Below are positions 18,903-43,886 of a stretch of DNA of 50,799 nucleotides, one piece after another (position 1 is the first letter of the stretch; every line of letters begins with the position of its first letter). The position numbers were made by a program, and so were the translations under genes. The notes beneath the pieces are model-generated. The model was given only the letters and a program-made list of their open reading frames with translations, searched no databases and had not been told where the DNA came from. This DNA comes from Porticoccaceae bacterium. Lineage in GTDB: Bacteria; Pseudomonadota; Gammaproteobacteria; Pseudomonadales; Porticoccaceae. The stretch covers positions 1-50,799 of the forward strand of contig JABJEX010000057.1 in NCBI GenBank assembly GCA_018663035.1, written 5' to 3'.

Positions 18903-18919
18903 TGTCATAGTTTGTGCCA
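18903..18919. promoter_or_regulatory. Island operator copy 1 (TGTCAT-AGTTT-GTGCCA)
   Basis: A 17-bp imperfect palindrome fitting TGNCAY-N5-RTGNCA. Read on the minus strand it is TGGCAC-AAACT-ATGACA, with the same AATAAT-type flank as the copies at 25167 and 25777. It lies 42 bases before the DUF2855 start. Confidence 0.65.
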
Positions 18920-18961
18920 TTATTCTTAAAAGGGTTACGAACATTGGTTGGAGTCAAAGCA

Positions 18962-20044
18962 ATGACTGAGTACACCGCACTGTGGGTAGATCGGACTGAG
19001 ATTACCAAGACTAGGCAGGTCAGCATGCCCATCGGTCCGGTCGCGGCCGGTCAGATACTAGTGGATATTGATAAGTTCGGTCTTACCGCTAATAACGTCA
19101 GCTATGCGGTGACTGGAGACAGTATTGGTTATTGGCAATTTTATCCGGCCGAGGAGAATTGGGGGATTGTGCCAGTCTGGGGCTGTGGCACGGTGATTGA
19201 GTCCAACTGCGACGAGATACCAGTGGGTGAGCGTCTCTGGGGCTATTTCCCCATGGCCAGCCATGCTGTGCTAACGCCGGGGCGTATTCACAGTGACTAC
19301 TTTATGGATGTGATTGAACATCGCCGAGAACTTCCCCTTATCTATAATCAATTCCGTCGCACTCGTGCAGAGCCAGCGTTTATTCAGGCTATGGAAACCG
19401 AGCGCTGCCTACTTTTTCCGCTGTTTATGACCTCCTACCTTATTTATGACTATTTGATCGACAATGATTTTTTCGGTGCCCAGCAGGTGGTCATTGGTTC
19501 AGTGTCCTCAAAAACCGGTTTTGGGCTGGCACAGATGCTTCGGGGTGACAGCTCCCTGAGTCAGTCAGTCATTGGTGTTACTTCTCAAGCCAATGTCCGG
19601 TTTGTTGAGGGTCTTGGCTGTTGTGACCAGATTGTGGTTTATCAAACTGAGCATGAAATTGATGCCTCTTTGCCTACAGCCTATGTAGATATGTCTGGAG
19701 ACGCTCGGCTGACTATTAGTTTGCACAACCATCTTGGCGACAATATGGTAGAGAGTTGCATGGTGGGGGCGAGTCACTGGCAAGAAGGTGGCAAGGTAGG
19801 TGAGCTGCCGGGCGCGCGGCCAAGGTTCTTTTTTGCGCCAGGACAGATTGAGAAGCGCAATAAAGAATGGGGTCCTGGAGTGGCTATGGTCAGAGCTATG
19901 ACCGCAAGCGCTGAGGTGGCAGCCAAAGTCTCTGCGGATATCGATATCCAATGGGTAGAGGGTGTGGAGAGTTTGGCAGAGCACTGGGCCCAATTGCTGG
20001 ATAACAAAATTTCACCCAGTACAGGGCTTATGGTAAGGCTGTGA
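18962..20044 (+). CDS. DUF2855 family protein
   Basis: 360-residue cytosolic protein resembling the DUF2855 family, distantly like medium-chain dehydrogenase/quinone reductase folds: an N-terminal GroES-like half (VDIDKFGLTANNVSYAVTGDSIGYWQFYP) and a central nucleotide-binding-like half (QQVVIGSVSSKTGFGLAQ). The family function is not established. The start is ATG 18962; an upstream in-frame start at 18914 would run into the operator. The downstream sulfatase starts inside its stop codon (GTGA overlap), indicating tight coupling. Confidence 0.8.
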   Translation: MTEYTALWVDRTEITKTRQVSMPIGPVAAGQILVDIDKFGLTANNVSYAVTGDSIGYWQFYPAEENWGIVPVWGCGTVIESNCDEIPVGERLWGYFPMASHAVLTPGRIHSDYFMDVIEHRRELPLIYNQFRRTRAEPAFIQAMETERCLLFPLFMTSYLIYDYLIDNDFFGAQQVVIGSVSSKTGFGLAQMLRGDSSLSQSVIGVTSQANVRFVEGLGCCDQIVVYQTEHEIDASLPTAYVDMSGDARLTISLHNHLGDNMVESCMVGASHWQEGGKVGELPGARPRFFFAPGQIEKRNKEWGPGVAMVRAMTASAEVAAKVSADIDIQWVEGVESLAEHWAQLLDNKISPSTGLMVRL

Positions 20045-21729
20045 AGCGATTAGTTAGCGCCGTACTGCTAGTTATTATTGCCGGCCTTATCGGATGGCAA
20101 AACCGGGTTGATTTGTTGGTGTTTGCGGCGCCCAAATTGCAAGAATTATTCAGCCCAATTGCCGAGAATAGAGCCATTAACTGGTCCCAGGGGCCACAGA
20201 CAGCTAATCTTGATCCGAGTCTGAGGCCGCCCAATATTGTTCTGATTGTCACTGACGATATGGGTTTTAATGATATTTCGCTGTACAACGGTGGTGCTGG
20301 TGATGGCACATTGCAGACGCCAAGTATTGATGCGCTAGCTGAGCAGGGGGTGACCTTCACTAATGGCTATGCGGCCAATGCTGTCTGCGCTCCTTCTCGT
20401 GCATCCATTATGACCGGGCGCTACTCAACAAGGTTTGGGTTTGAATTTACGCCTTTCTTTAAAACTGGCGCCACTATTTTCGAATGGATGAATGAACTGG
20501 ATCCACGCCCTGTTCCTCTCCTGATAAATGATGAAAATGTGCAGAATATGCGACCTATGCGTGAATTGGGGCTCCCCGCCTCAGAGATCACCATCGCTGA
20601 ATTACTCAAGCAGCGGGGTTATTACACAGCACATATTGGCAAGTGGCACCTCGGCTCTGTGGGTGAGATGGTGGCAGTCAAGCAGGGTTTTGACGATAGT
20701 CTAGAGATGGGCGGAGGCCTGTATTTGCCTGAGGATCATCCGCAGGTGGTCAATGCAAAGATCAGCGGTGATCGTATTGATCGCATGATTTGGGCCACCG
20801 GCCGCTACGCCGCAAGGTTTAACAGTCTGGGTGAGTCTGGAGCGGAGTTTCAGCCCAAGGGTTATCTGACCGATTACTACACAGACGAGGCCATAAAGGT
20901 GATTGAAGCAAATCGTCACCGACCATTCTTTTTATATCTGGCTCATTGGGGTATTCACAACCCTCTGCAAGCTAGCCGGCAAGACTATGACGCTCTGGCG
21001 CACATCAAAGATCACAGATTGCGTGTCTATTCAGCGATGATTCGCGCCGTTGACCGCAGTGTCGCAAAGATTACTCAAAGCCTCGAAGACAATGGTTTGA
21101 GCGAGAATACATTGGTTATTTTTACCAGTGACAATGGTGGCGCCGGATATATAGGCTTGCCCGAGCTAAATAAACCCTTTCGTGGCTGGAAGCTGAATCA
21201 CTTTGAGGGCGGCACTCACGTCCCCTTTATGGCCAAATGGCCTGCACAGATTAACGCGGGCAGTGTTTTGGATGCGCCTATTCATCATAACGATATCTTC
21301 AGCACTGTGGCAGCCGCTGCTGGCCTTAAAGTGCCAAGCGATCGTCAAATCGACGGGGTTAATTTACTGCCCTATATTCGTAACGAGATTGCAACCGAGC
21401 CTCACCAGACATTGTTCTGGCGAGAGGGGCACCAGCAAGCAGTTTTGCATCGGGGTTGGAAATTAATTCGTGCCAACCAGCCCCATCTACCGCAACCAGC
21501 CCCCCGTGCAAAATGGTTGTTTAATCTTGCTGAAGACCCTACAGAGCAGATTAACTTGGTGACACAATACCCAGAGAAGCTAGCGCTTCTGGAGGCTCTA
21601 CTAGAGAGCCACAACGCCGAGCAGATGGAGCCACTATGGCCCAGCGTGTTCGATTCACCGCAGCTAATTGATAAAACAAGCAATGAGCCCATCGAAGAGG
21701 GCGATGAGTTTATTTATTGGCCCAATTAG
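20041..21729 (+). CDS. Sulfatase (formylglycine-dependent, N-terminally anchored or secreted)
   Basis: 562-residue sulfatase of the alkaline-phosphatase superfamily. C116 in VCAPSRASIMTGR is the cysteine converted to formylglycine by the maturation enzyme; D72/D73 in IVTDDMGFND, HIGKWHLG and FTSDNGG complete the metal and sulfate site. A hydrophobic N-terminal helix (about 4-20) indicates export or membrane anchoring. By family it hydrolyses a sulfate ester; the substrate cannot be read. The start is GTG overlapping the DUF2855 stop by 4 bases. No formylglycine-generating enzyme is in the window. An unusual residue block around 145-165 lies between the active-site loop and the GKWHLG motif. 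Confidence 0.9.
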   Translation: MKRLVSAVLLVIIAGLIGWQNRVDLLVFAAPKLQELFSPIAENRAINWSQGPQTANLDPSLRPPNIVLIVTDDMGFNDISLYNGGAGDGTLQTPSIDALAEQGVTFTNGYAANAVCAPSRASIMTGRYSTRFGFEFTPFFKTGATIFEWMNELDPRPVPLLINDENVQNMRPMRELGLPASEITIAELLKQRGYYTAHIGKWHLGSVGEMVAVKQGFDDSLEMGGGLYLPEDHPQVVNAKISGDRIDRMIWATGRYAARFNSLGESGAEFQPKGYLTDYYTDEAIKVIEANRHRPFFLYLAHWGIHNPLQASRQDYDALAHIKDHRLRVYSAMIRAVDRSVAKITQSLEDNGLSENTLVIFTSDNGGAGYIGLPELNKPFRGWKLNHFEGGTHVPFMAKWPAQINAGSVLDAPIHHNDIFSTVAAAAGLKVPSDRQIDGVNLLPYIRNEIATEPHQTLFWREGHQQAVLHRGWKLIRANQPHLPQPAPRAKWLFNLAEDPTEQINLVTQYPEKLALLEALLESHNAEQMEPLWPSVFDSPQLIDKTSNEPIEEGDEFIYWPN

Positions 21730-21750
21730 CCTGCCCACTGCTGCGGGCAA

Positions 21751-21785
21751 AAAAAAGGCGCAGCCATGGGACTGTGCCTTTTTGT
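21751..21785. terminator. Bidirectional terminator between sulfatase and SDR genes
   Basis: AAAAAGGCGCAG (21752-21763) pairs with CTGTGCCTTTTT (21772-21783) with one wobble. A-rich and T-rich flanks on both sides suit the converging genes. Confidence 0.8.
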
Positions 21786-21797
21786 TTTTGGACAGGT

Positions 21798-22562: not shown

Positions 22563-22576
22563 GGTTTCTCCTGGTG

Positions 22577-23263: not shown

Positions 23264-23311
23264 TGGATAATCACCATGAACTCTTCAATAGTGTCTTGTG
23301 CACGCGACGCA

Positions 23312-25120
23312 TTAATATCCGGCAGTGCCGTTAACAAGCTGCTCATAAAAGGCTCGGTCTAGTAATTCATACTGATCAGCTTTTGGCTGGCGCACATAGA
23401 TAGATTCTTCAATCTGGTCCAGGTGGTAGGCCTGCTGCTTTAATTTACCTTTAAATAGTTTAAATGTCCCTGTGGTGTCCTGTTCCTGTTCAATGCGCAC
23501 AAAGACCGGGCGGGCAAAGACAGGCAATTCTCGGTCGACAAATTCAGTAAATGCCGCTGGGTTAAATTTCTGACCAGGGGACAATGTAATGGCAGCCATA
23601 CCTGCTTTACCTTCTGCTCCGGGGATATCTACGCCATAGACATTGCTTATCTCAACCTGTTCGCAGGCATTGAGAATCTCACCCACCTCATTGGTTGAGA
23701 CATTCTCTGCGCGCCAGCGAAAGGTATCACCGACGCGGTCTACAAATTGGTAGTGGGGCAGTCCCATGGCAAAGCCTACATCGATTTTGCGAATTAAATC
23801 GCCGGTATTAAACCAGCGGTCTCCGGGTTCGCGGAGGTCGGTAAGAATCTTGTCATTGGTCGCATCAGCGCTTTTATAGCCATCAAACTTATAGCGATCA
23901 TCAATCTGCCCCAGCATAAGTCCAGCTTCGCCAGGTTCCACTTCGATAACCTTGCCGTTTTCATCCAGCACGATTTCGTCGTTCTCAATATCGTATTTCA
24001 CCAGCATTACCACTACAGAGCCGGTCCCGATGGTGGAGTCTTTATTGAGAATATTGAGAAAAGATACATTGCCCTCGCTGGAGCCATAAATTTCGGTAAT
24101 TCGTTTTACCCCAAAGCGATTGCGGAACATATCCCACACGTCTGGGCGCAAACCATTGCCTAGCATGGTTTTAAGGGGGTTGTTTTTCTCCTCTGGGCAC
24201 TCGGGTGCCATGGCCAGATAGCGACAGAGTTCGCCAACATAGACAAACAATGTAGTCTGGTACTTTTGTACCTCAGGCCAAAATTGAGTGGCTGAAAAAC
24301 GGCGCCGCAAAAACATGGATGCACCAGAATGCAAGCAGCTGCCAATGCCCAACAAAAAGCCAGTTGCATGGTAGAGCGGCAGACAGATATACATGCGGTC
24401 ACTGGATTTAGCATGAAAGCCGACGGTAGAGTAGGGCTTGGCTGCCGACATTATTTTGCGGTGGTAGACAATCGCCGGCTTGGGCAGTCCAGTGGTACCA
24501 GAAGTAAAGATATAAAGAGCAATTTCGCCAGCAGCGATATCCTCTGTCTCTGGATGATTATCAGTAGGCATATCGGCCAACGTCGCGCTAAAGTCAGTGG
24601 CCCATTCTGGTGCGCCCTGATTGACCTGTTTGTCGGCTACCCACAGATAATCTTTATCCGCTAGCTCAAGCCCCTCTTTAACGCCCATCACTGAGGCGAG
24701 CAATTCCTGCCCAACCAGGCATTTTTTGGAGTTGACCGTGCTTATGCAATGGGCCAAAGGGCGGTCAGTAAGGCCGGTGTTAATTAAACCCGCAGTAGCG
24801 CCAATTTTGGCCAGTGCAAAGATACTGCACAACAGCTCGGTGCGGTTCTCAATTAAGACCGCTACACAGTCGCCCCGAGTAACCCCCTGCTGTTTAAGAC
24901 TGTGAGCAAACTGGTTGGTCAAGCAATTAAACTCAGACCAGTTGAGCTCTTGGCCTTCGCAGACAATGGCTGATTTTTCAGGGTATGTGGCAGCAGTGGT
25001 TTGAAACATTAACCCCAGAGAGGTTTTGGCATCCTCCAGAGGGGGTTTAAAGAATATCAATGTGGGGGCGGCTTGGAAGAAATTCCAAATCACACGGAAA
25101 AACTCGATGATCTTTTTCAT
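23312..25120 (-). CDS. Long/very-long-chain acyl-CoA synthetase (FATP-type)
   Basis: 602-residue AMP-forming acyl-CoA ligase. The P-loop-like TSGTTGLPKP is at 206-215, with EIYGSSEGN and WFNTGDLIR motifs further on and a C-terminal domain with FKLFKGKLKQQAY. An N-terminal hydrophobic stretch (about 8-25) and the VGDTFRWRAENVSTNEVGEIL segment are typical of the FATP/SLC27 and bacterial FadD6 branch that activates long or bulky acids. It heads the minus-strand operon with crotonase and SDR, has an AGAGGGA ribosome site, and starts 46 bases from an operator copy in the divergent promoter region. Confidence 0.9.
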   Translation of the reverse strand: MKKIIEFFRVIWNFFQAAPTLIFFKPPLEDAKTSLGLMFQTTAATYPEKSAIVCEGQELNWSEFNCLTNQFAHSLKQQGVTRGDCVAVLIENRTELLCSIFALAKIGATAGLINTGLTDRPLAHCISTVNSKKCLVGQELLASVMGVKEGLELADKDYLWVADKQVNQGAPEWATDFSATLADMPTDNHPETEDIAAGEIALYIFTSGTTGLPKPAIVYHRKIMSAAKPYSTVGFHAKSSDRMYICLPLYHATGFLLGIGSCLHSGASMFLRRRFSATQFWPEVQKYQTTLFVYVGELCRYLAMAPECPEEKNNPLKTMLGNGLRPDVWDMFRNRFGVKRITEIYGSSEGNVSFLNILNKDSTIGTGSVVVMLVKYDIENDEIVLDENGKVIEVEPGEAGLMLGQIDDRYKFDGYKSADATNDKILTDLREPGDRWFNTGDLIRKIDVGFAMGLPHYQFVDRVGDTFRWRAENVSTNEVGEILNACEQVEISNVYGVDIPGAEGKAGMAAITLSPGQKFNPAAFTEFVDRELPVFARPVFVRIEQEQDTTGTFKLFKGKLKQQAYHLDQIEESIYVRQPKADQYELLDRAFYEQLVNGTAGY

Positions 25121-25166
25121 TGGTTCCCTCTAGGTTTTTTTGCTAGGTATTATTATTTTTATATTA

Positions 25167-25183
25167 TGGCACTGCTTGTGACA
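25167..25183. promoter_or_regulatory. Island operator copy 2 (TGGCAC-TGCTT-GTGACA)
   Basis: A 17-bp imperfect palindrome fitting TGNCAY-N5-RTGNCA, in AT-rich DNA between the divergent acyl-CoA synthetase (46 bases away) and DUF1330 (200 bases away) genes. The flank ATATTA is shared exactly with the copy at 25777. Confidence 0.65.
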
Positions 25184-25383
25184 GTATTCTAATGCTTATC
25201 AACAGCCCTAGTATATCGACATGCAGCGGTTTTTAGGAACAACAGTAGCTAAAAAGGAAGTCCCGCGAGTCACGAGTAAATACCTATCCTGCTTCAGATC
25301 ACGGACTGCAGCTATTGCCGAAAAGCATAAGACTATTTAATGTACACAGAGGCAAAAAACCAATACAAAAAAAGGCCAAAACG

Positions 25384-25776: not shown

Positions 25777-25793
25777 TGGCACAGTAAGTGTCA
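25777..25793. promoter_or_regulatory. Island operator copy 3 (TGGCAC-AGTAA-GTGTCA)
   Basis: A 17-bp imperfect palindrome, 56 bases before the start of the next gene. It is flanked by TATTAT-type elements on both sides, so it would overlap a promoter -10. Confidence 0.68.
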
Positions 25794-25849: not shown

Positions 25850-26440
25850 ATGATTTCAGCACTGGGTATCTGGAGCGCCGCTGCAATACTCTATGCCATT
25901 TTTTGGCTATGGTATGTCGGGTTCAGGGGCAAACTATCTGAGGCAGAAGTCGCTGAGTATCTGCAGCGTTTTGAATCCCTGGGATTAGCCCCTGACCGGC
26001 TGGAAAATCTGCATCACTTTCTGTCTAACGACGATGGTCGTGAATGGTTTATGGTCAATCTACTCGAAATGAAGGCACCCAAGCGAGAATCTATACAGCT
26101 ATTGCGCAGCTACACCAAAATCTTTTTGGGCGGCCTGCTTAAACGCGGGGGTCACCCGTTTTTTGTCGCCAATGCCCAGGCTAAAAATATTGAAAGCCTA
26201 CATTCTGAGCAAGCAAACAACTGGGACTCGATTGGGCTTGTTCGCTACCGCAGTCGCCGTGATCTGGCCGAGATGTTACTCGACACCTTTGGCAGTGACC
26301 ATCATGCCAACAAGTTGGCATCGCTGGAAAAGACCTTTGCCTTTCCAGCTACCACCGGCTTGCTATTAGGCTCGCCGCGGGTGCTAGTGCCCATGGGTCT
26401 GGCCCTAATTGCGGCCCTAACCCAGATTGCACTTTTATAA
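25850..26440 (+). CDS. Membrane-anchored protein of unknown function
   Basis: 196 residues, not recognised with certainty. An N-terminal membrane helix (about 3-21) and a hydrophobic C-terminal helix (about 172-195) bracket a soluble part. The middle (about 55-155, REWFMVNLLEMK then GGHPFFVANAQ and NNWDSIGLVRYRSRRDLAEML) has the rhythm of a DUF1330-like ferredoxin fold, echoing the DUF1330 gene just upstream. The ATG at 25850 with a GGGGGA ribosome site is preferred; the frame opens at 25799, which is too close to the operator. It is the first gene of a five-gene beta-oxidation-type operon. Confidence 0.65.
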   Translation: MISALGIWSAAAILYAIFWLWYVGFRGKLSEAEVAEYLQRFESLGLAPDRLENLHHFLSNDDGREWFMVNLLEMKAPKRESIQLLRSYTKIFLGGLLKRGGHPFFVANAQAKNIESLHSEQANNWDSIGLVRYRSRRDLAEMLLDTFGSDHHANKLASLEKTFAFPATTGLLLGSPRVLVPMGLALIAALTQIALL

Positions 26441-26475
26441 CCTGTATTGATAGAAAAATAAGTAGAGAGATTACC

Positions 26476-27585
26476 ATGAGCAACAATGCCTTATTTCAAC
26501 CGTTTCAGCTGGGAAACCTTGAGTTAAAGAACCGTATCGTTATGGCCCCTATGACTAGGAATTTTTCTCCCAATGACAATATACCGGGCGACAATGTGGT
26601 TGATTACTACCGCCGTCGTGCCGAGGGTGGGGTGGGTCTGATTATTACTGAGGGCACCTGCGTGGGTCATGCCGGGGCTAGCGGCTATCCCGGCGTACCT
26701 TATTTCCATGGCGAGGCGCGTCTAGCCGGCTGGAAGAAAGTCGTCGATGCGGTACATGCTGCCGGTGGTAAAATTGCACCGCAGCTTTGGCATGTGGGTG
26801 CGGTTCGCAAATCCGGCACGCTGCCGGAGGGCGATGTGCCGGGTTATGGTCCCTCTGGTATGAATGTACCGGGTAAGGCCAATCGCCATGTAATGACTCA
26901 GCAGGATATTGACGATGTGGTGGCGGCCTTTGCTCAGGCTGCGGCCGACGCCAAAGCCATAGGCTGTGATGCTGTTGAACTGCATGGCGCTCATGGTTAT
27001 CTAATCGACCAGTTTTTCTGGGCCGGTACCAATCAGCGCGATGATCATTATGCGGGGTCTATCGAAAACCGAAATCGTTTCGCTGTGGAAATTATTGAGG
27101 CGGTAAGAACTGCCGTAGGCGCAGATTTTCCGATTATCTTGCGCTGGTCCCAGTGGAAACAACAGGATTACGCGGCCCGTTTGGCAGTTACCCCAGAAGA
27201 GCTCGAACGATTTTTGTTACCTTTGTCAGAGGCCGGCGTCGATATGTTTCACTGCTCTCAGCGACGTTTTTGGGAACCAGAGTTTGAAGGCAGTGACTTA
27301 AATCTTGCGGGCTGGACCCAAAAGATTACGGGTAAGCCAGCAATTACCGTGGGTAGTGTAGGTTTGGATGCAGACTTTACTCCCAAGCCTGGGGAAGCGC
27401 ATTTTAAAGAAGCTGACCCCGCTAGCCTAGATACCTTGCTGGATCGCTTAGAGCAAAAAGAATTTGACCTTGTGGCGGTTGGCCGAGCGCTGATCTCAAA
27501 TCCAAACTGGGTCAATCTGGTTGAGGCAAAGCGCATGGATGATTTAAAACCCTTCCGTAAAGAACATCTGGGCACCTTAGTTTAA
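26476..27585 (+). CDS. Old Yellow Enzyme family NADH:flavin oxidoreductase
   Basis: 369-residue FMN-dependent TIM-barrel enzyme. The substrate-binding histidine motif HGAHGYL has H170 and H173, QLWHVG lies at 103-108, and the C-terminal VAVGRALISNPNWV binds FMN phosphate. It reduces activated C=C bonds such as enones. It follows the membrane protein gene by 35 bases and precedes an SDR gene, so both may act on an alpha,beta-unsaturated intermediate. There is no iron-sulfur extension, so it is not a 2,4-dienoyl-CoA reductase FadH. Confidence 0.88.
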   Translation: MSNNALFQPFQLGNLELKNRIVMAPMTRNFSPNDNIPGDNVVDYYRRRAEGGVGLIITEGTCVGHAGASGYPGVPYFHGEARLAGWKKVVDAVHAAGGKIAPQLWHVGAVRKSGTLPEGDVPGYGPSGMNVPGKANRHVMTQQDIDDVVAAFAQAAADAKAIGCDAVELHGAHGYLIDQFFWAGTNQRDDHYAGSIENRNRFAVEIIEAVRTAVGADFPIILRWSQWKQQDYAARLAVTPEELERFLLPLSEAGVDMFHCSQRRFWEPEFEGSDLNLAGWTQKITGKPAITVGSVGLDADFTPKPGEAHFKEADPASLDTLLDRLEQKEFDLVAVGRALISNPNWVNLVEAKRMDDLKPFRKEHLGTLV

Positions 27586-27626
27586 GCCGACCAGTAGACA
27601 GCAGCCAAAAAATAGAGGATTAGGCT

Positions 27627-28406
27627 ATGGAGTTAGACAACAAAATTGTGGTTATCACCGGTGCAGGTAGCGGCATTGGTAGGGCATTGGCCCTGCGCTT
27701 TCACGCCGAAGGGGCAAAGCAAATTGTCTGCGCCGATATTAATTTAGAAAACGCTCAGGAAACCGCCGATATGATCGGGGGTGTAGCCATGCTGGCGAAT
27801 GTTGCCAAGGAAGAAGATACGGCGCGCATTATTGAAGAAACAGAGAGCACCATAGGCCCCATCGACCTATTTTGCTGCAATGCTGGCGTGGGCTTTGGCC
27901 AGTTTATCGACTCCCCCAATGCCGAGTGGCAGGCAATCTGGGACATTAACGTTATGTCTCATGTTTATGCCGCGCGCCATCTGGTGCCGCGTATGGTGGC
28001 TCGGGGCGGTGGTTATTTTTTAAATACCTCCTCTGCCGCTGGGCTGCTTAACCAGATTGGTGGTGCCGCCTACGGGGTAACAAAGCATGCCGCTGTTGGC
28101 TTTGGTGAATGGCTGGCTATTCATCATAAACATGAGGGCATTAATGTCTCTATGCTCTGCCCGCAGGCGGTGCGAACAGCTATGACAGCAGTGGACAATG
28201 ACGCGGTTGCCGCGGCCGCGAACAACGGCATGATTGAACCTGAGGAATTAGCAGACTCTGTGATTGAAGGTTTGCGCGAAGAGAGTTTTTTGATTTTGCC
28301 CCATCCGATTGTTAAAGAGTTTATGCAAAACAAAACCAGCAACTACGATCGCTGGATTGGTGGCATGAACAAGCTGATGCGCAAAATTACCGGTATTATC
28401 GAATAA
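27627..28406 (+). CDS. Short-chain dehydrogenase/reductase
   Basis: 259-residue SDR with GAGSGIG at 12-18, CNAG at 84-87 and catalytic Tyr149 and Lys153 (YGVTK) with Ser135/136. Asp37 in VCADINLEN at the end of the second strand suggests NAD(H) preference. The C-terminal extension (FMQNKTSNYDRWIGGMNKLMRKI) differs from the other SDR in the window, so the two are not recent duplicates. It sits in the OYE-SDR-ACAD-crotonase operon. Confidence 0.87.
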   Translation: MELDNKIVVITGAGSGIGRALALRFHAEGAKQIVCADINLENAQETADMIGGVAMLANVAKEEDTARIIEETESTIGPIDLFCCNAGVGFGQFIDSPNAEWQAIWDINVMSHVYAARHLVPRMVARGGGYFLNTSSAAGLLNQIGGAAYGVTKHAAVGFGEWLAIHHKHEGINVSMLCPQAVRTAMTAVDNDAVAAAANNGMIEPEELADSVIEGLREESFLILPHPIVKEFMQNKTSNYDRWIGGMNKLMRKITGIIE

Positions 28407-28432
28407 AAATTTGAATTTAAGGGGAGTGGACA

Positions 28433-29656
28433 ATGGGTTTTGAACTAACGGCCAGAGCAGCAGAGCTCAATGAGCGCCTAAAGGTGTTTATGGATGAGCA
28501 TATATATCCTCGCGAACATGAGTATGAGGAATTTACCAGTGATCAGAACAACCTCTGGCAGTATCCAGACTGGTATCAGGGCCTAAAAGACGAAGCCAAA
28601 AGGCAGGGTCTGTGGAATCTGTTTTTGCCCGAGGAGTACAAACCCTGGAGCCCCGGCTTAACTAACCTAGAGATAGCGCCACTCTTTGAAACCATGTCCA
28701 GAGCAGCCTGGTCGCAGCAGATCTTTAACTGTAATGCCCCAGATCGCGGCAATATGGAAGTGCTGGCCAAGTACGGTACTCCAGAGCAACAGGAGCAGTG
28801 GTTGTTGCCCCTCCTAGCTGGTGAAATTCGCTCCGCCTATGCCATGACCGAACCAGATGTAGCCTCATCTGATGCCACCAATATGGAGTTAAAGATTGAG
28901 CGCGACGGCGATGAATATGTTTTAAACGGCCGCAAATGGTGGACGACTAATGTGATTGGCTCTGCCTGCAAAATTATGCTGGTAATGGGCAAGTCCAACC
29001 CGGACGCACCGCGTCACCAACAGCACAGTACTATTTTGGTACCCACAGATACTCCTGGGGTAAAAATGTCTCGACCCCTAAAAGTCTTCGGCGAATACCA
29101 TTCACCTGGCGGTGAAGGGGATATGATATTTAGCGATGTGCGGGTGCCAGTTAGCAATTTGATACTAGGTGAAGGCCGTGGCTTTGAAATTGCCCAGGGC
29201 CGCTTAGGACCAGGTCGCTTTCAATACGCCATGATGTTTGTGGGCATGGCCCAACGCAGCCTGGAGCTTATGTGTGAGCGTGCCCAGCAGCGGGTAGCCT
29301 TTGGTGAAACCCTGAGCAAAAAAACCAGCGTGCAACACGAGATTGCCCGCAGCCGCTGCGATATTGAGCAGTGTCGATTGTTGGTATTGGCCGCCGCTGA
29401 AAAAATGGATAAATACGGCATAGATGGTGCCCGTGAAGATATCAGCATGCTCAAAATTGTGGCACCGAAAATGTGTGAAGATGTGTCTAGCCGCGCCATG
29501 CAAATCTTTGGTGGCATGGGCGTGTGCCAAGACACGCCACTGGCCCATATCTGGACAACAAGTAGATTCTGTCGCATTGCCGACGGCCCAGATGAGGTTC
29601 ATATGTCCCAGTTGGCAAAGATGACCATGCGTTCTTTAAACCGACAGTCGAACTAA
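28433..29656 (+). CDS. Acyl-CoA dehydrogenase (ACAD10/11-like)
   Basis: 407-residue FAD-dependent acyl-CoA dehydrogenase. Family segments are AMTEPDVASSDATN (137-150), NGRKWWTT (165-172), and QIFGGMGVCQDTPLAHIW near the C-terminus. The position of the usual catalytic Glu carries Asp (D384 in RIADGPDEVH), a pattern I associate with the ACAD10/11 branch. In animals those proteins join this domain to an aminoglycoside-phosphotransferase-like kinase; a matching kinase is encoded at 47033-48070. The gene is followed by a dienoyl-CoA isomerase gene 15 bases away. Confidence 0.88.
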   Translation: MGFELTARAAELNERLKVFMDEHIYPREHEYEEFTSDQNNLWQYPDWYQGLKDEAKRQGLWNLFLPEEYKPWSPGLTNLEIAPLFETMSRAAWSQQIFNCNAPDRGNMEVLAKYGTPEQQEQWLLPLLAGEIRSAYAMTEPDVASSDATNMELKIERDGDEYVLNGRKWWTTNVIGSACKIMLVMGKSNPDAPRHQQHSTILVPTDTPGVKMSRPLKVFGEYHSPGGEGDMIFSDVRVPVSNLILGEGRGFEIAQGRLGPGRFQYAMMFVGMAQRSLELMCERAQQRVAFGETLSKKTSVQHEIARSRCDIEQCRLLVLAAAEKMDKYGIDGAREDISMLKIVAPKMCEDVSSRAMQIFGGMGVCQDTPLAHIWTTSRFCRIADGPDEVHMSQLAKMTMRSLNRQSN

Positions 29657-29671
29657 GGAAGGGAGCAGATC

Positions 29672-30499
29672 ATGAGTTTTTCATCCGATGTGTTAAGTAT
29701 AGAGAAGCAGGGCCAGGTGGGGATTATCTGGCTTGATCGTGAGGCAAAATACAATGCGCTGTCCACTGAACTCTGGTCAGCTATTCCCCATGGCCTAGCG
29801 GCACTCTGCGAAGATCCAGAGATCGGCGCGATTGTGCTAGCGGGTCGCGGTAAACATTTCTGCGCCGGTATTGATCTCGCGGAGGATGGCCTTAGCGAGC
29901 ATAAAAAGGCCAAGGCCCGTTCCAAGGCAGAGGCGAATATTCGCCAACTGGGCAACACCCAAAAGTTCCAACAGGCAATTAGCTCTCTAGCCGAATGCGA
30001 GCTACCGGTTATCGCGGTGGTGCAGGGTTTTTGTCTAGGAGCAGGTGTCGATCTGATCACTGCCTGTGATATCCGTATTGCCAGTGCAGACTCGGTATTT
30101 AGTGTGCGGGAAACTCGTCTTGGTCTGGTGGCCGACGTGGGTACCCTGCAGCGTCTACCTAAGATTCTCAATGCCGGTCATGTAGCTGAGCTGGCCTATA
30201 CAGGCAAGGATATTAAAGCTGATCGCGCTGAGAAGATTGGGCTGGTCAATGATGTGTATGAAACTGCGCAAGCCACTATGGCAGCCGGTATGGCTATGGC
30301 TGCAGAGATCGCAGCTAACTCACCCATGGCCGTGCGCGGTACCAAGTTTATTCTGCGCCAGTCAGAGAATCTAACAGATGAACAGAGCCTGATGTTAAAC
30401 GGCATGTACACCATGATGACCAGCTTGGAGTCCAATGACTTGCAAGAGGGAATTATGGCATTTGCTGAACGCAGGCCAGCGAAGTTTACGGGCAGTTAA
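29672..30499 (+). CDS. Delta3,5-delta2,4-dienoyl-CoA isomerase-like crotonase
   Basis: 275-residue crotonase. It carries three acidic residues, D127 (GAGVD), E147 (RETRLGL) and D155 (ADVGTLQRLP), at exactly the spacing (20 and 8) of the catalytic D176/E196/D204 of rat dienoyl-CoA isomerase, and the ADVGTLQRLPK segment is the hallmark of that branch. It would shift double bonds in unsaturated acyl-CoA with odd-positioned bonds. It is the last gene of the operon, followed by a very strong terminator. Confidence 0.88.
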   Translation: MSFSSDVLSIEKQGQVGIIWLDREAKYNALSTELWSAIPHGLAALCEDPEIGAIVLAGRGKHFCAGIDLAEDGLSEHKKAKARSKAEANIRQLGNTQKFQQAISSLAECELPVIAVVQGFCLGAGVDLITACDIRIASADSVFSVRETRLGLVADVGTLQRLPKILNAGHVAELAYTGKDIKADRAEKIGLVNDVYETAQATMAAGMAMAAEIAANSPMAVRGTKFILRQSENLTDEQSLMLNGMYTMMTSLESNDLQEGIMAFAERRPAKFTGS

Positions 30500-33563: not shown

Positions 33564-34163
33564 TCAGGCTCTGGGTATGAGGCTCTCTAGCAGGTCAATT
33601 AGCAGCGCTGCACTGTCCTCTGGACTCAGTGACTGATGGTCGCGCAATCTGTCCCAGTACTCGAAAGACATAATCGCAAAAATAGCCTCTTGACGAGATT
33701 GAGAGAGGCGACTGATTTCCGGCAGAGCGCGTGCTATATCAGAGCGCATTTTGTTTTGATACTTGGCGTAGTTCTGTTTAAGAAAGGCAGATCGCCAGCG
33801 CCGAGTAGCTGTGGATTTCATGATGTTGCTGTTGTTCTCGTACAGCTTCTGAATCTCGTTTACGCCCCATACTATACGCTCGCGAAGTGGCAGCGCAGTG
33901 TCTACAGAGGAGGCCTTACCTATAAAGCCTTCCCGCCAGATTTGATCCCCTGTTGCAAAGATAGCTTCCATGTCCTCAAAGTGGCGAAACACCGAGCGAA
34001 TACCAACCTTGGCATGATCTGCAATTTGCTGAGCCGTGGGCACCAAATTACCCTGATTGATGAGTTGCAGCATGGCCTCGACAATCACCTGACGGCTGCG
34101 GTCGCTGCGCAGGCGGCGGCCATCTACTTTTTCTGAGGTGCTGGTACTATCTGACATAGGCAT
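33564..34163 (-). CDS. TetR-family transcriptional regulator
   Basis: 199-residue repressor. The N-terminal helix-turn-helix (about 43-62, TAQQIADHAKVGIRSVFRHF) is followed by an all-helical ligand-binding part. The C-terminal half is not close to any regulator I can name. It is the only TetR protein in the window and lies 75 bases downstream of the metallo-beta-lactamase-fold gene, whose promoter region contains an island operator at 35354. I infer that it binds the TGNCAY-N5-RTGNCA sites and represses its own operon; this is not proven. ATG 34163 is used; an ATG two codons later is equally possible. Confidence 0.85.
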   Translation of the reverse strand: MPMSDSTSTSEKVDGRRLRSDRSRQVIVEAMLQLINQGNLVPTAQQIADHAKVGIRSVFRHFEDMEAIFATGDQIWREGFIGKASSVDTALPLRERIVWGVNEIQKLYENNSNIMKSTATRRWRSAFLKQNYAKYQNKMRSDIARALPEISRLSQSRQEAIFAIMSFEYWDRLRDHQSLSPEDSAALLIDLLESLIPRA

Positions 34164-34237: not shown

Positions 34238-35308
34238 TTAAAGCCCATTGTTTTTAATCTCGATAGAGCTAGAGTTAGCGGGCAAGGATACTTCGGTGCC
34301 ATCTTGGCCCAGAGTAAATTCGCTAAAATATTCATCAACACCGTCCAACCAGGCCGCCTCGGCACCGGGTTGATCCAGGGGTGGCACTACATGGTAGTAG
34401 AGTAGATGGCCCACGTTGGCGTCGCGAGCAGTCTCTGCGGCCTCTATTGGAGAGGCATGGTAGTCCAACACATCATGAAAAATTTGCGCCATATTTGTGC
34501 TGCCAGCATTACTTGCGCCCTGACTCATGGCTTGCAGCAGGGTAGGTGATAGCGCCTCATGAACAAGCAGATCAATGCCCTCGGCAAAGCGTTCAATATT
34601 GGCGGATTTACTGGTGTCACCGGAGATCAGTGCGCTGCGTCCAGCATAACTGAATCTATAGGCAACAGCGGGAGAGATAGGGAAATGATCAACTGCTAAC
34701 ATTTCAACTGTCAGGCCATCCTGTTGATACAGAGTAATCAGTTCGCCATCGGCGGGAAGCGGGGCGCTAACGGCGACCATGCCGGCACCACTGAGTGGTG
34801 TGACAGCATTGCCATGGTGATCGTTGCGATAGACCTTGTCCTGCCCATAGGCCAGATTAAATCCAGCGACCACATCGGCCACGCCCTCAGGGCCATAGAC
34901 CTTAAGAGGCGTTTCGTGGGAGCCGTTGGCCCAGCGCAAGGTAGCCACCTCGCCCAGACCATCGATATGATCGGAGTGAAAATGGCTGAGAAAAACGCCA
35001 CTGATTGAACCGGGCGCAAAGCCCATGCGGCCAAGATTGCGAATGCCATTACTACCAGTGTCTACCAGAAACAGTTTGCCAGCGGCGACCACCGCAACAC
35101 AGGGCCCTGAGCGACGCACCGAGGGCATTGGCCCACCGGCACCGCATAGAGCCACATGCAGGCCATCGCCCAGATCTTGGATTTTATCGCTCTGCAGATT
35201 TGCTTGCATCCCTTTGGGGACAATGCTTAGAAAAATATCCCCGCGCTTGGTGTAGAGAGCCAATGCGGTGGTGAGCACTAGCAGGCCGACAATATATGAC
35301 TTCTTCAC
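34238..35308 (-). CDS. Metallo-beta-lactamase-fold hydrolase (RNase Z/arylsulfatase-like), exported
   Basis: 356 residues with an N-terminal hydrophobic helix (about 5-20). The metal motif HFHSDHIDG gives H109, H111, D113 and H114; ISGDT and VDHFPISPAVAYRF follow as later strands, as in the RNase Z/AtsA group. The frame opens at 35323 with GTG, but the first codons (GGGAGGT) are clearly a ribosome site, so the second GTG at 35308 is the true start. The gene is divergent from a GST-like gene, with an operator halfway between them (45 bases from each start). The substrate is unknown; an ester or lactone is plausible. Confidence 0.82.
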   Translation of the reverse strand: MKKSYIVGLLVLTTALALYTKRGDIFLSIVPKGMQANLQSDKIQDLGDGLHVALCGAGGPMPSVRRSGPCVAVVAAGKLFLVDTGSNGIRNLGRMGFAPGSISGVFLSHFHSDHIDGLGEVATLRWANGSHETPLKVYGPEGVADVVAGFNLAYGQDKVYRNDHHGNAVTPLSGAGMVAVSAPLPADGELITLYQQDGLTVEMLAVDHFPISPAVAYRFSYAGRSALISGDTSKSANIERFAEGIDLLVHEALSPTLLQAMSQGASNAGSTNMAQIFHDVLDYHASPIEAAETARDANVGHLLYYHVVPPLDQPGAEAAWLDGVDEYFSEFTLGQDGTEVSLPANSSSIEIKNNGL

Positions 35309-35353
35309 TATTTTACCTCCCACAGATCAGATTCTGTTTAGAGGGTGGCATGA

Positions 35354-35370
35354 TGGCATACAGTGTGTCA
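35354..35370. promoter_or_regulatory. Island operator copy 4 (TGGCAT-ACAGT-GTGTCA)
   Basis: A 17-bp imperfect palindrome centred between two divergent start codons, 45 bases from each. Its right flank ATATAT matches that of the copy at 43870. Confidence 0.66.
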
Positions 35371-35415: not shown

Positions 35416-36483
35416 ATGTCCCAACTCTCTGTGCCTCAACCGTCTTCGCCCCAACCTGAACCTATTACCCTGATCGGCGCTCCGCCATCACCTTACACCA
35501 GAAAAATGGTGGCTTTGCTCAGATACAGACATATTGCCTACAGAATTATCTGGGGCTCGCCCGATGCTGTGCTCACACAGATGGGTATTGCCAAACCCAA
35601 GGTGGCGCTGCTGCCAACCTTTATACTGCCCGATGAGTCGGGTGAGATGCAGGCTGTCTGTGACTCGACACCGATTATTCGGCGTTTGGAATCCGAACAT
35701 CAGGGACGCTCGGTAATTCCAGATGACCCAGCTATGGCCTTTATCGACTATTTGTTGGAAGATTTTGCCGACGAATGGTGCACCAAATATATGTTCCATT
35801 ACCGTTGGCATCACGAGGCTGATGCTGACAATGCGGGAACTCTGCTACCTTTGGTTCATCAGGTTAACTTGCCCGCAGAGCAGTTTAATCAGTTCAAGCC
35901 CCATATCACCCAGCGCCAGATAGGCCGATTGCATGTTGTTGGCTCTAATGATGAGACTGCGCCACTTATCGATACCAGCTATGAGCGTCTGCTCGGGGCG
36001 TTGGAGTCCCATCTAGCTCTGCAGCCCTACCTGATGGGTAATCGTCCCGGAGCATCTGATTTTGCACTCTTTGGACAGTTAACCCAGTTAATCGGATTTG
36101 ACCCTACGCCGCGCGCAATCAGCCACAGATTGTCGCCACGCGCCGTGGCCTATACCACGGTGATGGAAGACCAAACTGGTATCAACCCCTGTGCCAATGA
36201 CTGGAACACTACCGAGACTGCGCCAGATAGCTTAAAGGCTATTTTAAAAGAAGTTGGCCATGTCTATGCGCCTGCGCTGTTGGCCAATGCCAGAGCACTG
36301 CAAGCAGGAGAGAGCAGCTGGCAGATAGAAATTGATGGCAGTGTCTGGGCGCAACAGACTTTTAATTATCAGGGCAAGTGCTTGCAGTGGATCAATGCTG
36401 AATATCAGGCACTAACAGGAGCGGAAAGGGCGCGTGTTGACGCGGTGCTTGAGGGCACTGGTTGCGAGCAGGTTATTCTCTAA
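35416..36483 (+). CDS. Glutathione S-transferase-like protein with long C-terminal extension
   Basis: 355 residues. The N-terminal thioredoxin-like domain begins ITLIGAPPSPYTRKMVALLRY (about 17-95), and a helical GST domain includes PYLMGNRPGASDFALFGQLTQL. About 100 extra residues follow, ending YQALTGAERARVDAVLEGTGC. A paralogue with the same layout lies at 42603-43724. The ATG at 35416 with a TTGGAG ribosome site (35404-35409) is chosen over the frame opening at 35296, which would cross the operator. Glutathione transfer or isomerisation is possible; the substrate is unknown. Confidence 0.8.
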   Translation: MSQLSVPQPSSPQPEPITLIGAPPSPYTRKMVALLRYRHIAYRIIWGSPDAVLTQMGIAKPKVALLPTFILPDESGEMQAVCDSTPIIRRLESEHQGRSVIPDDPAMAFIDYLLEDFADEWCTKYMFHYRWHHEADADNAGTLLPLVHQVNLPAEQFNQFKPHITQRQIGRLHVVGSNDETAPLIDTSYERLLGALESHLALQPYLMGNRPGASDFALFGQLTQLIGFDPTPRAISHRLSPRAVAYTTVMEDQTGINPCANDWNTTETAPDSLKAILKEVGHVYAPALLANARALQAGESSWQIEIDGSVWAQQTFNYQGKCLQWINAEYQALTGAERARVDAVLEGTGCEQVIL

Positions 36484-38533: not shown

Positions 38534-38545
38534 CGGGATATTTTT

Positions 38546-40069: not shown

Positions 40070-40087
40070 GCCCATAAGGAGGCTGTT

Positions 40088-40378: not shown

Positions 40379-40413
40379 ACCCTGAAATCTGTGTTAAAAA
40401 TTGGAGAATAATA

Positions 40414-40791: not shown

Positions 40792-40793
40792 CT

Positions 40794-42578
40794 ATGTGGT
40801 TCACAGCCAGTAAATCCAACTGGGGGCTGAGCTTAGCTGCGCTCCTGCTTCTCGCTCATCCCCCTGTTCTGGCTGCGCAACCACAGCCGAATATTGTTCT
40901 GATCCTGGCCGATGATCTCGGTTTTAGTGATCTTGCTTCCTACGGCAGTGAAATCCATACCCCGAGTATATCGACGTTGGCCGAGCAGGGGCTGAGCTTT
41001 ACCAATTACCACACTGGTGCCAACTGCGCGCCATCGCGGGCCATGTTACTGACTGGTGTGGACAGTCATCGCTCTGGCGTACCAAATATCCCAGAAATGA
41101 TTCCCCCTGAGCAGTCTCAGTACAGCCATTATTCAGGCACTCTGGGTCAGAATGTAGTGACTGTGGCTACTCTATTACAGGATGCTGGATATCATACCTA
41201 TATGGCCGGCAAGTGGCATCTGGGTCAAGCTTCAGATCAGTTGCCAAGTGTGCGGGGATTTGAGCGCACGGTGGCACTGGCAGATTCCGGTGCCGATAAC
41301 TGGCAGCAAAAGCCCTATATTCCAATCTATAAAAAAGCCAACTGGTATGCGGATGGTCAGGAGTATCAACTGCCCGATGACTTTTACTCGTCACGCTTTT
41401 TAATCGATAAAACCATCGAATTTATAGATAGCAATCAGGGCGATGGACAGCCATTCTTTGCCTATGTGCCTTTTCAGGCAGTGCATATTCCAGTGCAGGC
41501 CCCTCAGGAATATATTGACCGCTATATGGGCGTTTACGATCAGGGTTGGACAGCGCTGCGTACAGAGCGTCTAGCCCGCGCAATAAAGCTGGGGATTGTG
41601 CCAGCTCAGACCGAGATGGTTACCATGGCCAGCACGCCAAACTGGGATTCTCTAGAGGCTGACCAACAGGCCTATGAAGCAAAACGCATGGCGGTTTATG
41701 CAGCCATGGTTGAGGCTATGGATCATCATATTGGTCGTTTAGTGGCGCATTTAAAAGCCATAGGTCAATTTGATAATACGATATTTATAGTTACCTCGGA
41801 TAATGGTGCTGAAGCCATGGGTCAGCAGGTTCAAAAATCTTGGATTAATGGTCTTCGTATGTCTCTGCAGGATTACAGTATTGATTATGAAACACTGGGC
41901 CTTAAAGGCAGCTTTAATGCTATTGGCCCAGGGTTTTCCAGTGCCGCCGCGTCGCCGCTGGCCTACTATAAATTCTATTTGGGCGAGGGCGGTATGCGGG
42001 TGCCAATGATTATTGCTGGCCCAGGTATCGCCGCTAACCAGCAGCTTACCAATGCCTTCGCTTTTGTCACTGATATCACGCCAACGATTCTAGCGTTGAC
42101 TGGTGTAAAGCCTGCGCCTGCGCGCTATGGTGGCCGCTTAGTCGAACCATTGATAGGCCGCAGCCTGATGCCCTTGCTACAGGGCACTGCTGAGACGGTG
42201 TACCAAGCACATGAGTCCATAGGCCATGAGTTGATGGGCCATGGCGCGCTATTTATGGGTGATTATAAGATTGTCTTTAACCGCGGAACTCAGGGTGATA
42301 ACCAATGGCGTCTATTCGATATTGTTGCAGACCCTGGTGAGACGGAAGATCTCAGTACTAAAAATCCCGCTCAGCTGCAGCTTATGCTGGCGCGCTATCA
42401 GCAGTACATTGAGGAAAATAACGTACTGCCCACGCCTGAGGGGTATAGATTTGAGTCACAGATTATCTTAAACGGCCTGCATCAGGTGTTTCGTGAACAT
42501 ATTCTGCTTGTTATTTTGCTAGTGCTGTTCTTTTTACCCTTTGTATTACTACGTCAGAACCAAAAAATTCAAAAATAA
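40794..42578 (+). CDS. Arylsulfatase-family sulfatase, secreted with C-terminal membrane anchor
   Basis: 594-residue sulfatase. A signal peptide (about 1-28) is followed by D40/D41 (ILADDLGFSD), the formylglycine site C78 in NCAPSRAMLLTG, MAGKWHLGQ and VTSDNGAE. A hydrophobic helix at about 566-588 followed by a basic tail (RQNQKIQK) should anchor it in the inner membrane, facing the periplasm. It differs clearly from the sulfatase at 20041 in length and insertions, so they likely hydrolyse different sulfate esters. It lies between a small membrane protein gene and a GST-like gene. Confidence 0.92.
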   Translation: MWFTASKSNWGLSLAALLLLAHPPVLAAQPQPNIVLILADDLGFSDLASYGSEIHTPSISTLAEQGLSFTNYHTGANCAPSRAMLLTGVDSHRSGVPNIPEMIPPEQSQYSHYSGTLGQNVVTVATLLQDAGYHTYMAGKWHLGQASDQLPSVRGFERTVALADSGADNWQQKPYIPIYKKANWYADGQEYQLPDDFYSSRFLIDKTIEFIDSNQGDGQPFFAYVPFQAVHIPVQAPQEYIDRYMGVYDQGWTALRTERLARAIKLGIVPAQTEMVTMASTPNWDSLEADQQAYEAKRMAVYAAMVEAMDHHIGRLVAHLKAIGQFDNTIFIVTSDNGAEAMGQQVQKSWINGLRMSLQDYSIDYETLGLKGSFNAIGPGFSSAAASPLAYYKFYLGEGGMRVPMIIAGPGIAANQQLTNAFAFVTDITPTILALTGVKPAPARYGGRLVEPLIGRSLMPLLQGTAETVYQAHESIGHELMGHGALFMGDYKIVFNRGTQGDNQWRLFDIVADPGETEDLSTKNPAQLQLMLARYQQYIEENNVLPTPEGYRFESQIILNGLHQVFREHILLVILLVLFFLPFVLLRQNQKIQK

Positions 42579-42602
42579 AACCTAATCTACGAGAACAACG
42601 CG

Positions 42603-43724
42603 ATGACTCATGCTCTCTATGCATTGCCCCATTCACTTTACTCCGGTCGTGTTCGAGCCTATCTCATAAAAAATAATATCCCGTTTCAAGAGTTTTCCTG
42701 TGGGGTTGAGAGTTTTAAAACCGAAATTTTGCCTCTTGCAAAGCTTGCAACCATCCCGGCTTTGCGCACTCCAGAAGGGCAGGTTATTCGTGATGGTGGT
42801 GCCATTATTGAGTATTTCGAATCGGCAACTGGGCGACCCTGCCAACCTTTGACACCCAGACAGCAGATCATTAGCGGACTGTTTGATTTGATAGGCGCCG
42901 AGGGGTTACTTCGTCCCGCTATGCACTATCGCTGGAATTTCCCAGAAGAGAACCTGTCATTTTTGCACTATCACTTCTTTCATGCACAGCGCGTTCATCC
43001 AGACCGCGACGCTAAGACGCAATATATGATGGATAAAATGCGCTATGCAGCCACTGTATTTGGTGTAAATGATGGTAGTCGCAACCTTGTTGAGACGATC
43101 TATATGGAGTTTTTGTTAGCTCTCGATAAGCATTTCGAACAGTACCCCTATCTTTTAGGTTGGAAGCCCTGTATCGGTGACTTCGGTCTACTAGGCCCAA
43201 TGTTTGCCCACTTGGGGCGCGACCCTAAACCACTACAAATCATGCAGCAGCAGGCCCCCAATGTATATCGCTGGGTGGAGCGCATGAATCGTTCGTACCA
43301 GGATGCATCCGAGCAATATGAGGCGGGTTCTGATTTTCTTGCCGATGATGAGATACCGAACAGTCTTCTGTGCGTGCTATCCATTGTGGCCGAAGATTTA
43401 GTGCCCGAAACCCAAGCGGCGGCAGAATCTATCAACAGCTGGCTGTCCGAGAACCCTGTGTCCAGCGGCGACCGAGCCTCACGCTATCTGGGCCAGAATA
43501 ATTGCAGAGCCAGATTTAGAGTGCGCGAACAGGCTATTGAGGCTGGCGCTCAACCCTATCGGTTTCTCCAACTACAGCTGGTACAGGATACTCATAGTGC
43601 TTGCAATGTTGCTGAGCGAGCGAGCATAGACAGCATGCTGACCGACTGTGGCCTTCAGAGCCTGCTAACAACAAAGCTCAGCCGACGACTGGAGCAGCGA
43701 GATAATCTAGAAGTCTGGGTTTAG
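42603..43724 (+). CDS. Glutathione S-transferase-like protein, paralogue of the 35416 gene
   Basis: 373 residues. The N-terminal thioredoxin-like domain (ALYALPHSLYSGRVRAYLIKNNIPF) is followed by a GST helical domain with PYLLGWKPCIGDFGLLGPM, matching PYLMGNRPGASDFALFGQL of the paralogue, and a similar long C-terminal extension. A shared YRW segment lies at the start of the helical domain in both. It ends the operon that begins at 37103; no terminator is evident. The substrate is unknown. Confidence 0.8.
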   Translation: MTHALYALPHSLYSGRVRAYLIKNNIPFQEFSCGVESFKTEILPLAKLATIPALRTPEGQVIRDGGAIIEYFESATGRPCQPLTPRQQIISGLFDLIGAEGLLRPAMHYRWNFPEENLSFLHYHFFHAQRVHPDRDAKTQYMMDKMRYAATVFGVNDGSRNLVETIYMEFLLALDKHFEQYPYLLGWKPCIGDFGLLGPMFAHLGRDPKPLQIMQQQAPNVYRWVERMNRSYQDASEQYEAGSDFLADDEIPNSLLCVLSIVAEDLVPETQAAAESINSWLSENPVSSGDRASRYLGQNNCRARFRVREQAIEAGAQPYRFLQLQLVQDTHSACNVAERASIDSMLTDCGLQSLLTTKLSRRLEQRDNLEVWV

Positions 43725-43850
43725 CCTCCAGTGCTGTTTTTGCCATTGCCCCCTGACCTTATTTGGCAACCCCATAGTCATTATTGATTGAGGCATATCC
43801 AATGCCTCTGAGTTACTATAAAACCTTATTGGGGCGCTCGTATTTTTGAG

Positions 43851-43878
43851 TTGCTTCTAGCTTTGTATTTGGCATAAT
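43851..43878 (+). promoter_or_regulatory. Possible promoter overlapping operator copy 5
   Basis: TTGCTT (43851-43856), a 16-base spacer and CATAAT (43873-43878). The -10 lies inside the palindrome at 43870-43886, so binding there would block polymerase. Confidence 0.45.
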
Positions 43879-43886
43879 CCATGCCA
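43870..43886. promoter_or_regulatory. Island operator copy 5 (TGGCAT-AATCC-ATGCCA)
   Basis: The most symmetric copy: a perfect 6-5-6 inverted repeat, extended one pair on each side (43869-43887). It lies 37 bases before the start of the multifunctional beta-oxidation gene. Confidence 0.72.

What the first reader, a model, noticed from the sequence alone, without database searches (positions are those of the whole stretch)
18903..43886. A shared 17-bp palindrome (TGNCAY-N5-RTGNCA) links five promoters of the catabolic island into one apparent regulon
Copies at 18903-18919, 25167-25183, 25777-25793, 35354-35370 and 43870-43886 all lie in promoter regions, each 37-56 bases from a start codon. 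They precede DUF2855/sulfatase, acyl-CoA synthetase/crotonase/SDR divergent from DUF1330, the OYE/SDR/ACAD/isomerase operon, the MBL/GST divergent pair, and the beta-oxidation/kinase operon. Flanks are AT-rich and partly shared (ATATTA, ATATAT). With 8 fixed and 2 two-fold positions, a random 50.8-kb sequence of even composition would be expected to hold about 0.2 matches. I scanned by eye, so more copies may exist.
Basis: partly seen in the sequence, partly recalled or inferred. Interest (0 to 1): 0.82.

Follow-up and report, generated by a model that had tools for sequence, protein, structure and literature searches.

The report
TetR operators controlling a lipid-catabolism island
A short palindromic DNA word in front of five operons of a marine SAR92-type bacterium is probably the landing site of a repressor encoded in the same cluster, which would tie a set of lipid-breakdown genes into one switchable unit that related ocean bacteria also keep.

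Summary
In detail: the five 17-bp palindromes lie where stated, are the only matches in the window (0.32 expected; 0 of 100 shuffles reach five) and sit in promoter gaps. The regulon reading also holds. In 80 named loci centred on homologues of the cluster's TetR (33564-34163), TGNCAY-N5-RTGNCA occurs 115 times in 64 loci, against 5-25 times for every other spacer from 0 to 15; 95 of 115 copies are promoter-proximal. A dyad count given no motif ranks TGGCA-N7-TGCCA first. In three of ten relatives scanned, every strict genome-wide copy lies within 25 kb of this TetR. In seven loci the site is at the start of tetR. Orthologous promoters in seven same-genus genomes keep it exactly in 16 of 19 cases. 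Among the 45 most widespread neighbouring protein families, TetR is the only regulator recognised. Most likely these are operators of a self-regulating TetR repressor of lipid-type catabolism. Two targets, about 17 kb apart, are the separate kinase and dehydrogenase halves of animal ACAD11, so 4-hydroxy-acid breakdown is a plausible function. Binding, repression and ligand are inferred. It is a new regulator and operator of a known kind.

The parts
18903..18919 (.). operator-like palindrome before DUF2855/sulfatase
   Evidence: counterpart in G018 and G025
25167..25183 (.). operator-like palindrome before acyl-CoA synthetase/crotonase/SDR (minus strand)
   Evidence: counterpart in G018 and G025
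25777..25793 (.). operator-like palindrome before the 25850-30499 operon (unknown protein, OYE, SDR, ACAD11-type dehydrogenase, crotonase)
   Evidence: exact in G018, core only in G028, near-miss in G025
35354..35370 (.). operator-like palindrome between the metallo-hydrolase/TetR/DsbA/PQQ unit and GST; a third half-site TGGCA at 35346
   Evidence: exact in six of seven relatives, core only in G025
43870..43886 (.). operator-like palindrome before FadB-like/NMO/kinase
   Evidence: exact in G018, G008, G010, G021, G025
33564..34163 (-). TetR-family regulator, proposed to bind the palindromes
   Evidence: co-location
34238..35323 (-). metallo-hydrolase (MBL fold), first gene of the unit that contains tetR
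35416..36483 (+). GST-like protein, divergent
28433..29656 (+). acyl-CoA dehydrogenase, matches the ACAD domain of ACAD11
47033..48070 (+). APH-type kinase, matches the kinase domain of ACAD11
26476..27585 (+). old yellow enzyme
29672..30499 (+). crotonase, nearest EchA21 and dienoyl-CoA isomerases
43924..45996 (+). FadB-like multifunctional enzyme
23312..25120 (-). acyl-CoA synthetase
20041..21729 (+). sulfatase

Best explanation
The palindromes are operators of the TetR-family protein encoded at 33564-34163. A dimer would read one TGNCAY half-site with each recognition helix, within an AT-rich symmetric frame. It would repress five promoter regions, including that of its own transcription unit, until an intermediate of the pathway, most likely an acyl-CoA thioester, releases it. 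The controlled genes form a lipid-type catabolic regulon (acyl-CoA synthetase, OYE, ACAD11-type dehydrogenase and kinase, crotonases, FadB-like enzyme, sulfatase, PQQ dehydrogenase, GST-like proteins), with a few more targets elsewhere in the genome. Shown by computation: the sites, their conservation, their co-location with this TetR, the target families. Inferred: binding by this TetR, repression rather than activation, the ligand, and 4-hydroxy acids among the substrates.
For: Spacer scan in 80 TetR-centred loci: 115 hits in 64 loci at spacer 5, 5-25 hits at spacers 0-4 and 6-15. Dyad count without a given motif: TGGCA-N7-TGCCA first (39 hits, 23 loci), TGACA-N7-TGTCA joint third. 95 of 115 promoter-proximal against 40 of 118 for 12 control spacers (0-3, 6-12 and 14; 4, 13 and 15 were not used) and 19.6% of positions. 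Strict sites in ten genomes: 40 against 0 of the reversed control, 15 within 25 kb of the TetR with 0.7 expected; G155 4 of 4, G207 3 of 3, G062 3 of 3. Orthologous promoters: 16 of 19 exact, 2 core only. Site at or just upstream of tetR in seven loci. Recognition region nearly invariant in 27 and 58 sequences, fitting an unchanging motif. Only TetR recognised as a regulator in the 45 most widespread protein clusters. The halves vary independently. TetR-like fold, nearest KstR.
Against: No binding or expression data. 16 of 80 loci lack the exact motif; 10 of them carry TGNCA-N7-TGNCA in a promoter, 6 carry neither. In G016, G119 and G164 no strict site lies near the TetR; G037 has 2 of 11, G046 1 of 6, G103 1 of 7, G219 1 of 2. 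Genome-wide excess in TetR-bearing genomes is only two-fold (1.53 against 0.76 per Mb, p = 5e-4). Loci were chosen around the TetR, so another conserved neighbour cannot be wholly excluded; one 243-aa family in 8 loci has no Pfam match. Promoter elements were not convincingly found.
Confidence: 0.75

Rival explanations
1. The palindromes are operators of another, unlinked regulator; the TetR is only a neighbour in the cluster.
For: In several genomes many strict sites lie far from the TetR (G037 9 of 11, G046 5 of 6, G103 6 of 7), and genomes without a detected TetR still hold 0.76 loose matches per Mb.
Against: Co-location across families, sites at tetR itself, no other regulator among the 45 largest clusters.
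Confidence: 0.13
2. The TetR binds the sites but activates, or both activates and represses, rather than simply repressing.
For: Sites lie 37-56 bases before starts and no clear promoter elements fix their position relative to the polymerase. Vibrio LuxR-type TetR proteins are reported to do both (PMC9736018, passage).
Against: Location close to start codons and self-control are usual for TetR repressors (general knowledge).
Confidence: 0.08
3. The palindromes are transcription terminators or other RNA hairpins.
For: Site 43870 with its T-rich flank scores as terminator-like.
Against: Across 112 distinct sites the two halves pair no more than independent halves would at position 6 (63 against 63.4 expected; 27 C-A mismatches), only slightly more at position 3 (52 against 41.8). 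Sites lie before genes.
Confidence: 0.02
4. Chance cluster of a common word.
For: 13 of 17 copies elsewhere in the genome lie inside ORFs, as background would.
Against: Shuffles, spacer controls, conserved promoters.
Confidence: 0.01

Closest known systems
KstR, TetR repressor of cholesterol/lipid catabolism in mycobacteria (PMC1995591 and PMC3068626, listing and start of abstract)
   Same: TetR fold (nearest solved structures by fold search); one short palindrome before many scattered catabolic operons; CoA-thioester ligand in solved KstR complexes (titles).
   Different: About 15-17% identity in the structural alignments; operator is different (KstR operator recalled, not from a call); different gene set.
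P. putida lva operon with LvaR (PMC6692424, passages)
   Same: Kinase plus ACAD pair for 4-hydroxyacyl-CoA with an SDR and an acyl-CoA synthetase.
   Different: One operon, sigma54-type regulator LvaR; here the pair is split between two operons under a TetR-type operator.
TfmR, TetR repressor of fatty acid genes in Xanthomonas (PMC6637906, abstract and passages)
   Same: TetR that represses fadE-type genes and is released by long-chain fatty acids.
   Different: No binding motif seen in the passages; different organism and targets.
PA3973, TetR of P. aeruginosa (PMC9736018, passages)
   Same: TetR controlling an acyl-CoA dehydrogenase operon and itself.
   Different: 13-bp motif SAAGRNMTGAACG.
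ACAD10/ACAD11 (PMC12440821, PMC11342911, listing and passages)
   Same: Both domains matched by window proteins.
   Different: Fused in animals; two separate genes here.

Membership tests
TetR family | TetR_N DNA-binding domain | tested here: inconclusive
   PF00440 E 5.1e-5, 23.4 bits, just under the cut-off 24
TetR family | all-helical TetR fold | tested here: met
   model pLDDT 88.5; the Foldseek matches listed are mostly TetR-family proteins, 12 with E at most 0.001
TetR family | binds a palindromic operator as a dimer | not testable with these tools
   co-location only
KstR orthologues | sequence orthology to KstR | tested here: not met
   no KstR chain among the six PDB sequence matches at E up to 0.1; 15-17% identity for the KstR chains
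ACAD11/LvaA-LvaC 4-hydroxyacyl-CoA pair | homologous kinase and ACAD | tested here: met
   257 bits over 320 residues and 410 bits over 397 residues; HGDxxLDN kept
ACAD11/LvaA-LvaC 4-hydroxyacyl-CoA pair | activity on 4-hydroxyacyl-CoA | not testable with these tools
   needs an enzyme assay

The most novel reading that the evidence does not exclude
A previously undescribed TetR regulator family of SAR92 and Halieaceae bacteria controls, through TGNCAY-N5-RTGNCA, a dedicated pathway for oxidised or sulfated lipids of phytoplankton (4-hydroxy/4-oxo acids, unsaturated carbonyls). The two halves of ACAD11 sit in separate operons joined only by the operator, and a third half-site 8 bp away at the metallo-hydrolase/GST promoter points to a second bound protomer or dimer there.
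Probability: 0.3. Interest if true: 0.68.

Novelty: new member of a known kind. Interest (0 to 1): 0.5.

Why it matters
If right, it gives a function and a binding word to a TetR family found across SAR92 and Halieaceae genomes, lets the regulon be read in those genomes, and links genes of unknown role (DUF2855, GST-like and metallo-hydrolase proteins) to one substrate class. The split ACAD11 pair makes the substrate question directly testable: induction or growth on 4-hydroxy acids.

Tried and rejected
Covariation of recognition helix and motif could not be tested, because the recognition region hardly varies. Consensus promoter scans found nothing above chance that fixes the start site. G033, G017 and G016 (TetR about 49% identical) looked like exceptions but carry TGACACCATGCCTGCCA before tetR. 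A control of genomes with the targets but without the TetR was sought: of 25 same-genus genomes 11 have the TetR and 12 the metallo-hydrolase, 11 both and 13 neither; G031 has only the latter. G011 and G026 have the close dehydrogenase without the TetR but are 71% and 76% complete, so this control decides nothing.

A promoter set meant as held-out proved mostly not to be: 7 of its 12 distinct genes lie on contigs identical to loci already used. Ten of the 12 carry TGNCA-N7-TGNCA; of the 5 new ones 4 do. Spacers 4, 5, 6, 8, 9 and 10 give none in the 17 rows. My estimate was not changed by this.

Terminator reading rejected. Sterol or terpenoid degradation was considered and not adopted; of ring-attacking enzymes only a Rieske oxygenase (16858) was recognised. 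Residue numbers of the ACAD11 kinase could not be mapped cleanly onto the PDB chain, so only the HGDxxLDN motif is used.

Literature: six literal spellings of the motif gave 0 papers, DUF2855 0, SAR92 with TetR and transcriptional regulator 2, judged unrelated from title and start of abstract. Motif logos drawn as figures cannot be found this way.

Full report
Observation. TGNCAY-N5-RTGNCA is present exactly five times in the window, at the stated coordinates, against 0.32 expected and 0 of 100 shuffles with five. The looser core TGNCA-N7-TGNCA adds none (there 3 of 100 shuffles reach five, so the Y/R positions carry weight). All five lie outside ORF bodies, 37-56 bases before a likely start codon. 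The whole genome has 22 copies against 4 of the reversed control. Of the 17 outside the window 13 are inside ORFs and 4 intergenic. So the five are a dense cluster on a thin background.

Setting. Named homologues place the window near SAR92 clade / Porticoccaceae genomes. The left part that was scanned holds RuvB, Tol/TonB-type proteins, QueC and a class I tRNA synthetase; the right part is the catabolic island. The TetR gene follows the metallo-hydrolase gene on the minus strand, so it lies behind site 35354 and may control itself.

Conservation at orthologous promoters. Seven same-genus genomes with a TetR at 62-79% identity were examined over the stretches fetched. G018 has all five; its contig has the same length as that of SAR92 isolate H231.

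The TetR link. With a 27-row TetR alignment, 80 named loci were fetched, the best 80 of 425. In these 1.36 Mb the motif with spacer 5 occurs 115 times in 64 of 80 loci; spacers 0-4 and 6-15 give 5-25 hits each. A count of 5-mer dyads with no motif given ranks TGGCA-N7-TGCCA first (39 hits in 23 loci) and TGACA-N7-TGTCA joint third (24 in 24 loci), runs of N left aside. Of the 115, 95 are intergenic or near a 5' end, against 40 of 118 for 12 control spacers (0-3, 6-12, 14) and 19.6% of positions. The symmetric logo of those 95 is wTAtTAtTGRCAYAnWnTRTGYCAaTAaTAw. Of the 16 loci without the exact motif, 10 carry the core in a promoter and 6 carry neither. In ten genomes (nine of the 15 TetR-bearing ones, plus G016, chosen for its many matches), the strict form WWTGDCAY-N5-RTGHCAWW occurs 40 times and its reversed control never. 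Fifteen of the 40 lie within 25 kb of a TetR, 0.7 expected: G155 4 of 4, G207 3 of 3, G062 3 of 3, G037 2 of 11, G219 1 of 2, G046 1 of 6, G103 1 of 7, and none in G016, G119, G164. The other six TetR-bearing genomes were not scanned this way. In 194 order genomes, the 15 with the TetR average 1.53 loose sites/Mb and the 179 without 0.76 (Mann-Whitney p = 5e-4; 1.4e-3 without the own genome).

Is another regulator conserved? Of the 45 most widespread protein clusters in the 80 loci, 26 have window homologues, of which only TetR is a regulator. One representative of each of the other 19 was scanned; none is a regulator, and one 243-aa family (8 loci) has no Pfam match.

Targets. Behind 129 promoter copies in loci L089-L206 (some loci overlap or repeat; 112 distinct 17-mers) the first genes are most often homologues of the window's metallo-hydrolase (25) and GST (21), then the unknown protein 25799 (11), FadB-like (8), kinase (7) and TetR (7), with 70 of 193 having no window homologue. 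Of those 70, 55 were scanned: 13 alpha/beta hydrolases, 9 TonB receptors, 7 DJ-1-like and others. In the own genome, MaoC-hydratase and alpha/beta-hydrolase promoters elsewhere carry copies with counterparts before the orthologues in G012 and G018 (95% and 77% identical proteins); an NMO-like gene on contig 69 also has one, with no counterpart found in the stretches fetched.

Function. The dehydrogenase at 28433 matches the ACAD domain of ACAD11 at 410 bits and the kinase at 47033 matches its kinase domain at 257 bits, with HGDxxLDN in place. Mammalian ACAD10/11 and P. putida LvaA/LvaC phosphorylate 4-hydroxyacyl-CoA and eliminate phosphate to an enoyl-CoA (PMC12440821, PMC11342911; passages). 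Here the two genes are about 17 kb apart in two operons that share the operator. In five distinct other genomes the kinase is the first gene behind a site (seven rows, three of which are one contig). The OYE (nearest Sye4; 12-oxophytodienoate reductases among the hits) and the crotonase (EchA21, dienoyl-CoA isomerases) fit unsaturated or oxidised lipid acids; this step is inference.

Mechanism and limits. The two halves vary nearly independently, as protein half-sites do and RNA stems do not. The TetR model is all-helical with mean pLDDT 88.5; fold search puts KstR first, with weak E-values (best 2.6e-4), and the acyl-CoA-binding FadR and DesT appear lower in the list. A third half-site at N3 from the core recurs in 13 of 80 loci, other offsets in 0-6. 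The cases that I read lie at metallo-hydrolase/GST promoters, including the window's; its meaning is open. Direct binding, repression and ligand are not shown.

Noticed in passing
window 35346-35370: Third half-site: TGGCA-N3-TGGCA-N7-TGTCA at the metallo-hydrolase/GST promoter; the same spacing recurs in 13 of 80 relatives' loci.
   Followed up: partly
window 28433-29656 and 47033-48070: The two halves of animal ACAD11 (dehydrogenase and kinase) occur as separate genes in two operons of the island.
   Followed up: partly
window 43869-43887: The palindrome with its T-rich flank also scores as terminator-like; the pairing test across relatives speaks against a hairpin.
   Followed up: yes
G000 contig 68, 96-112 (L022): An intergenic copy of the motif near a contig end; its downstream gene is not in the assembly stretch.
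   Followed up: no
same-genus genomes G004, G007, G009, G013, G026, G034: Genomes of 1.2-1.4 Mb in which neither the TetR nor the metallo-hydrolase was found; some are incomplete. G059, also 1.3 Mb, has both.
   Followed up: no
G037: A 5-Mb relative with two TetR homologues and 11 strict sites, 9 of them far from either; perhaps a wider regulon.
   Followed up: no
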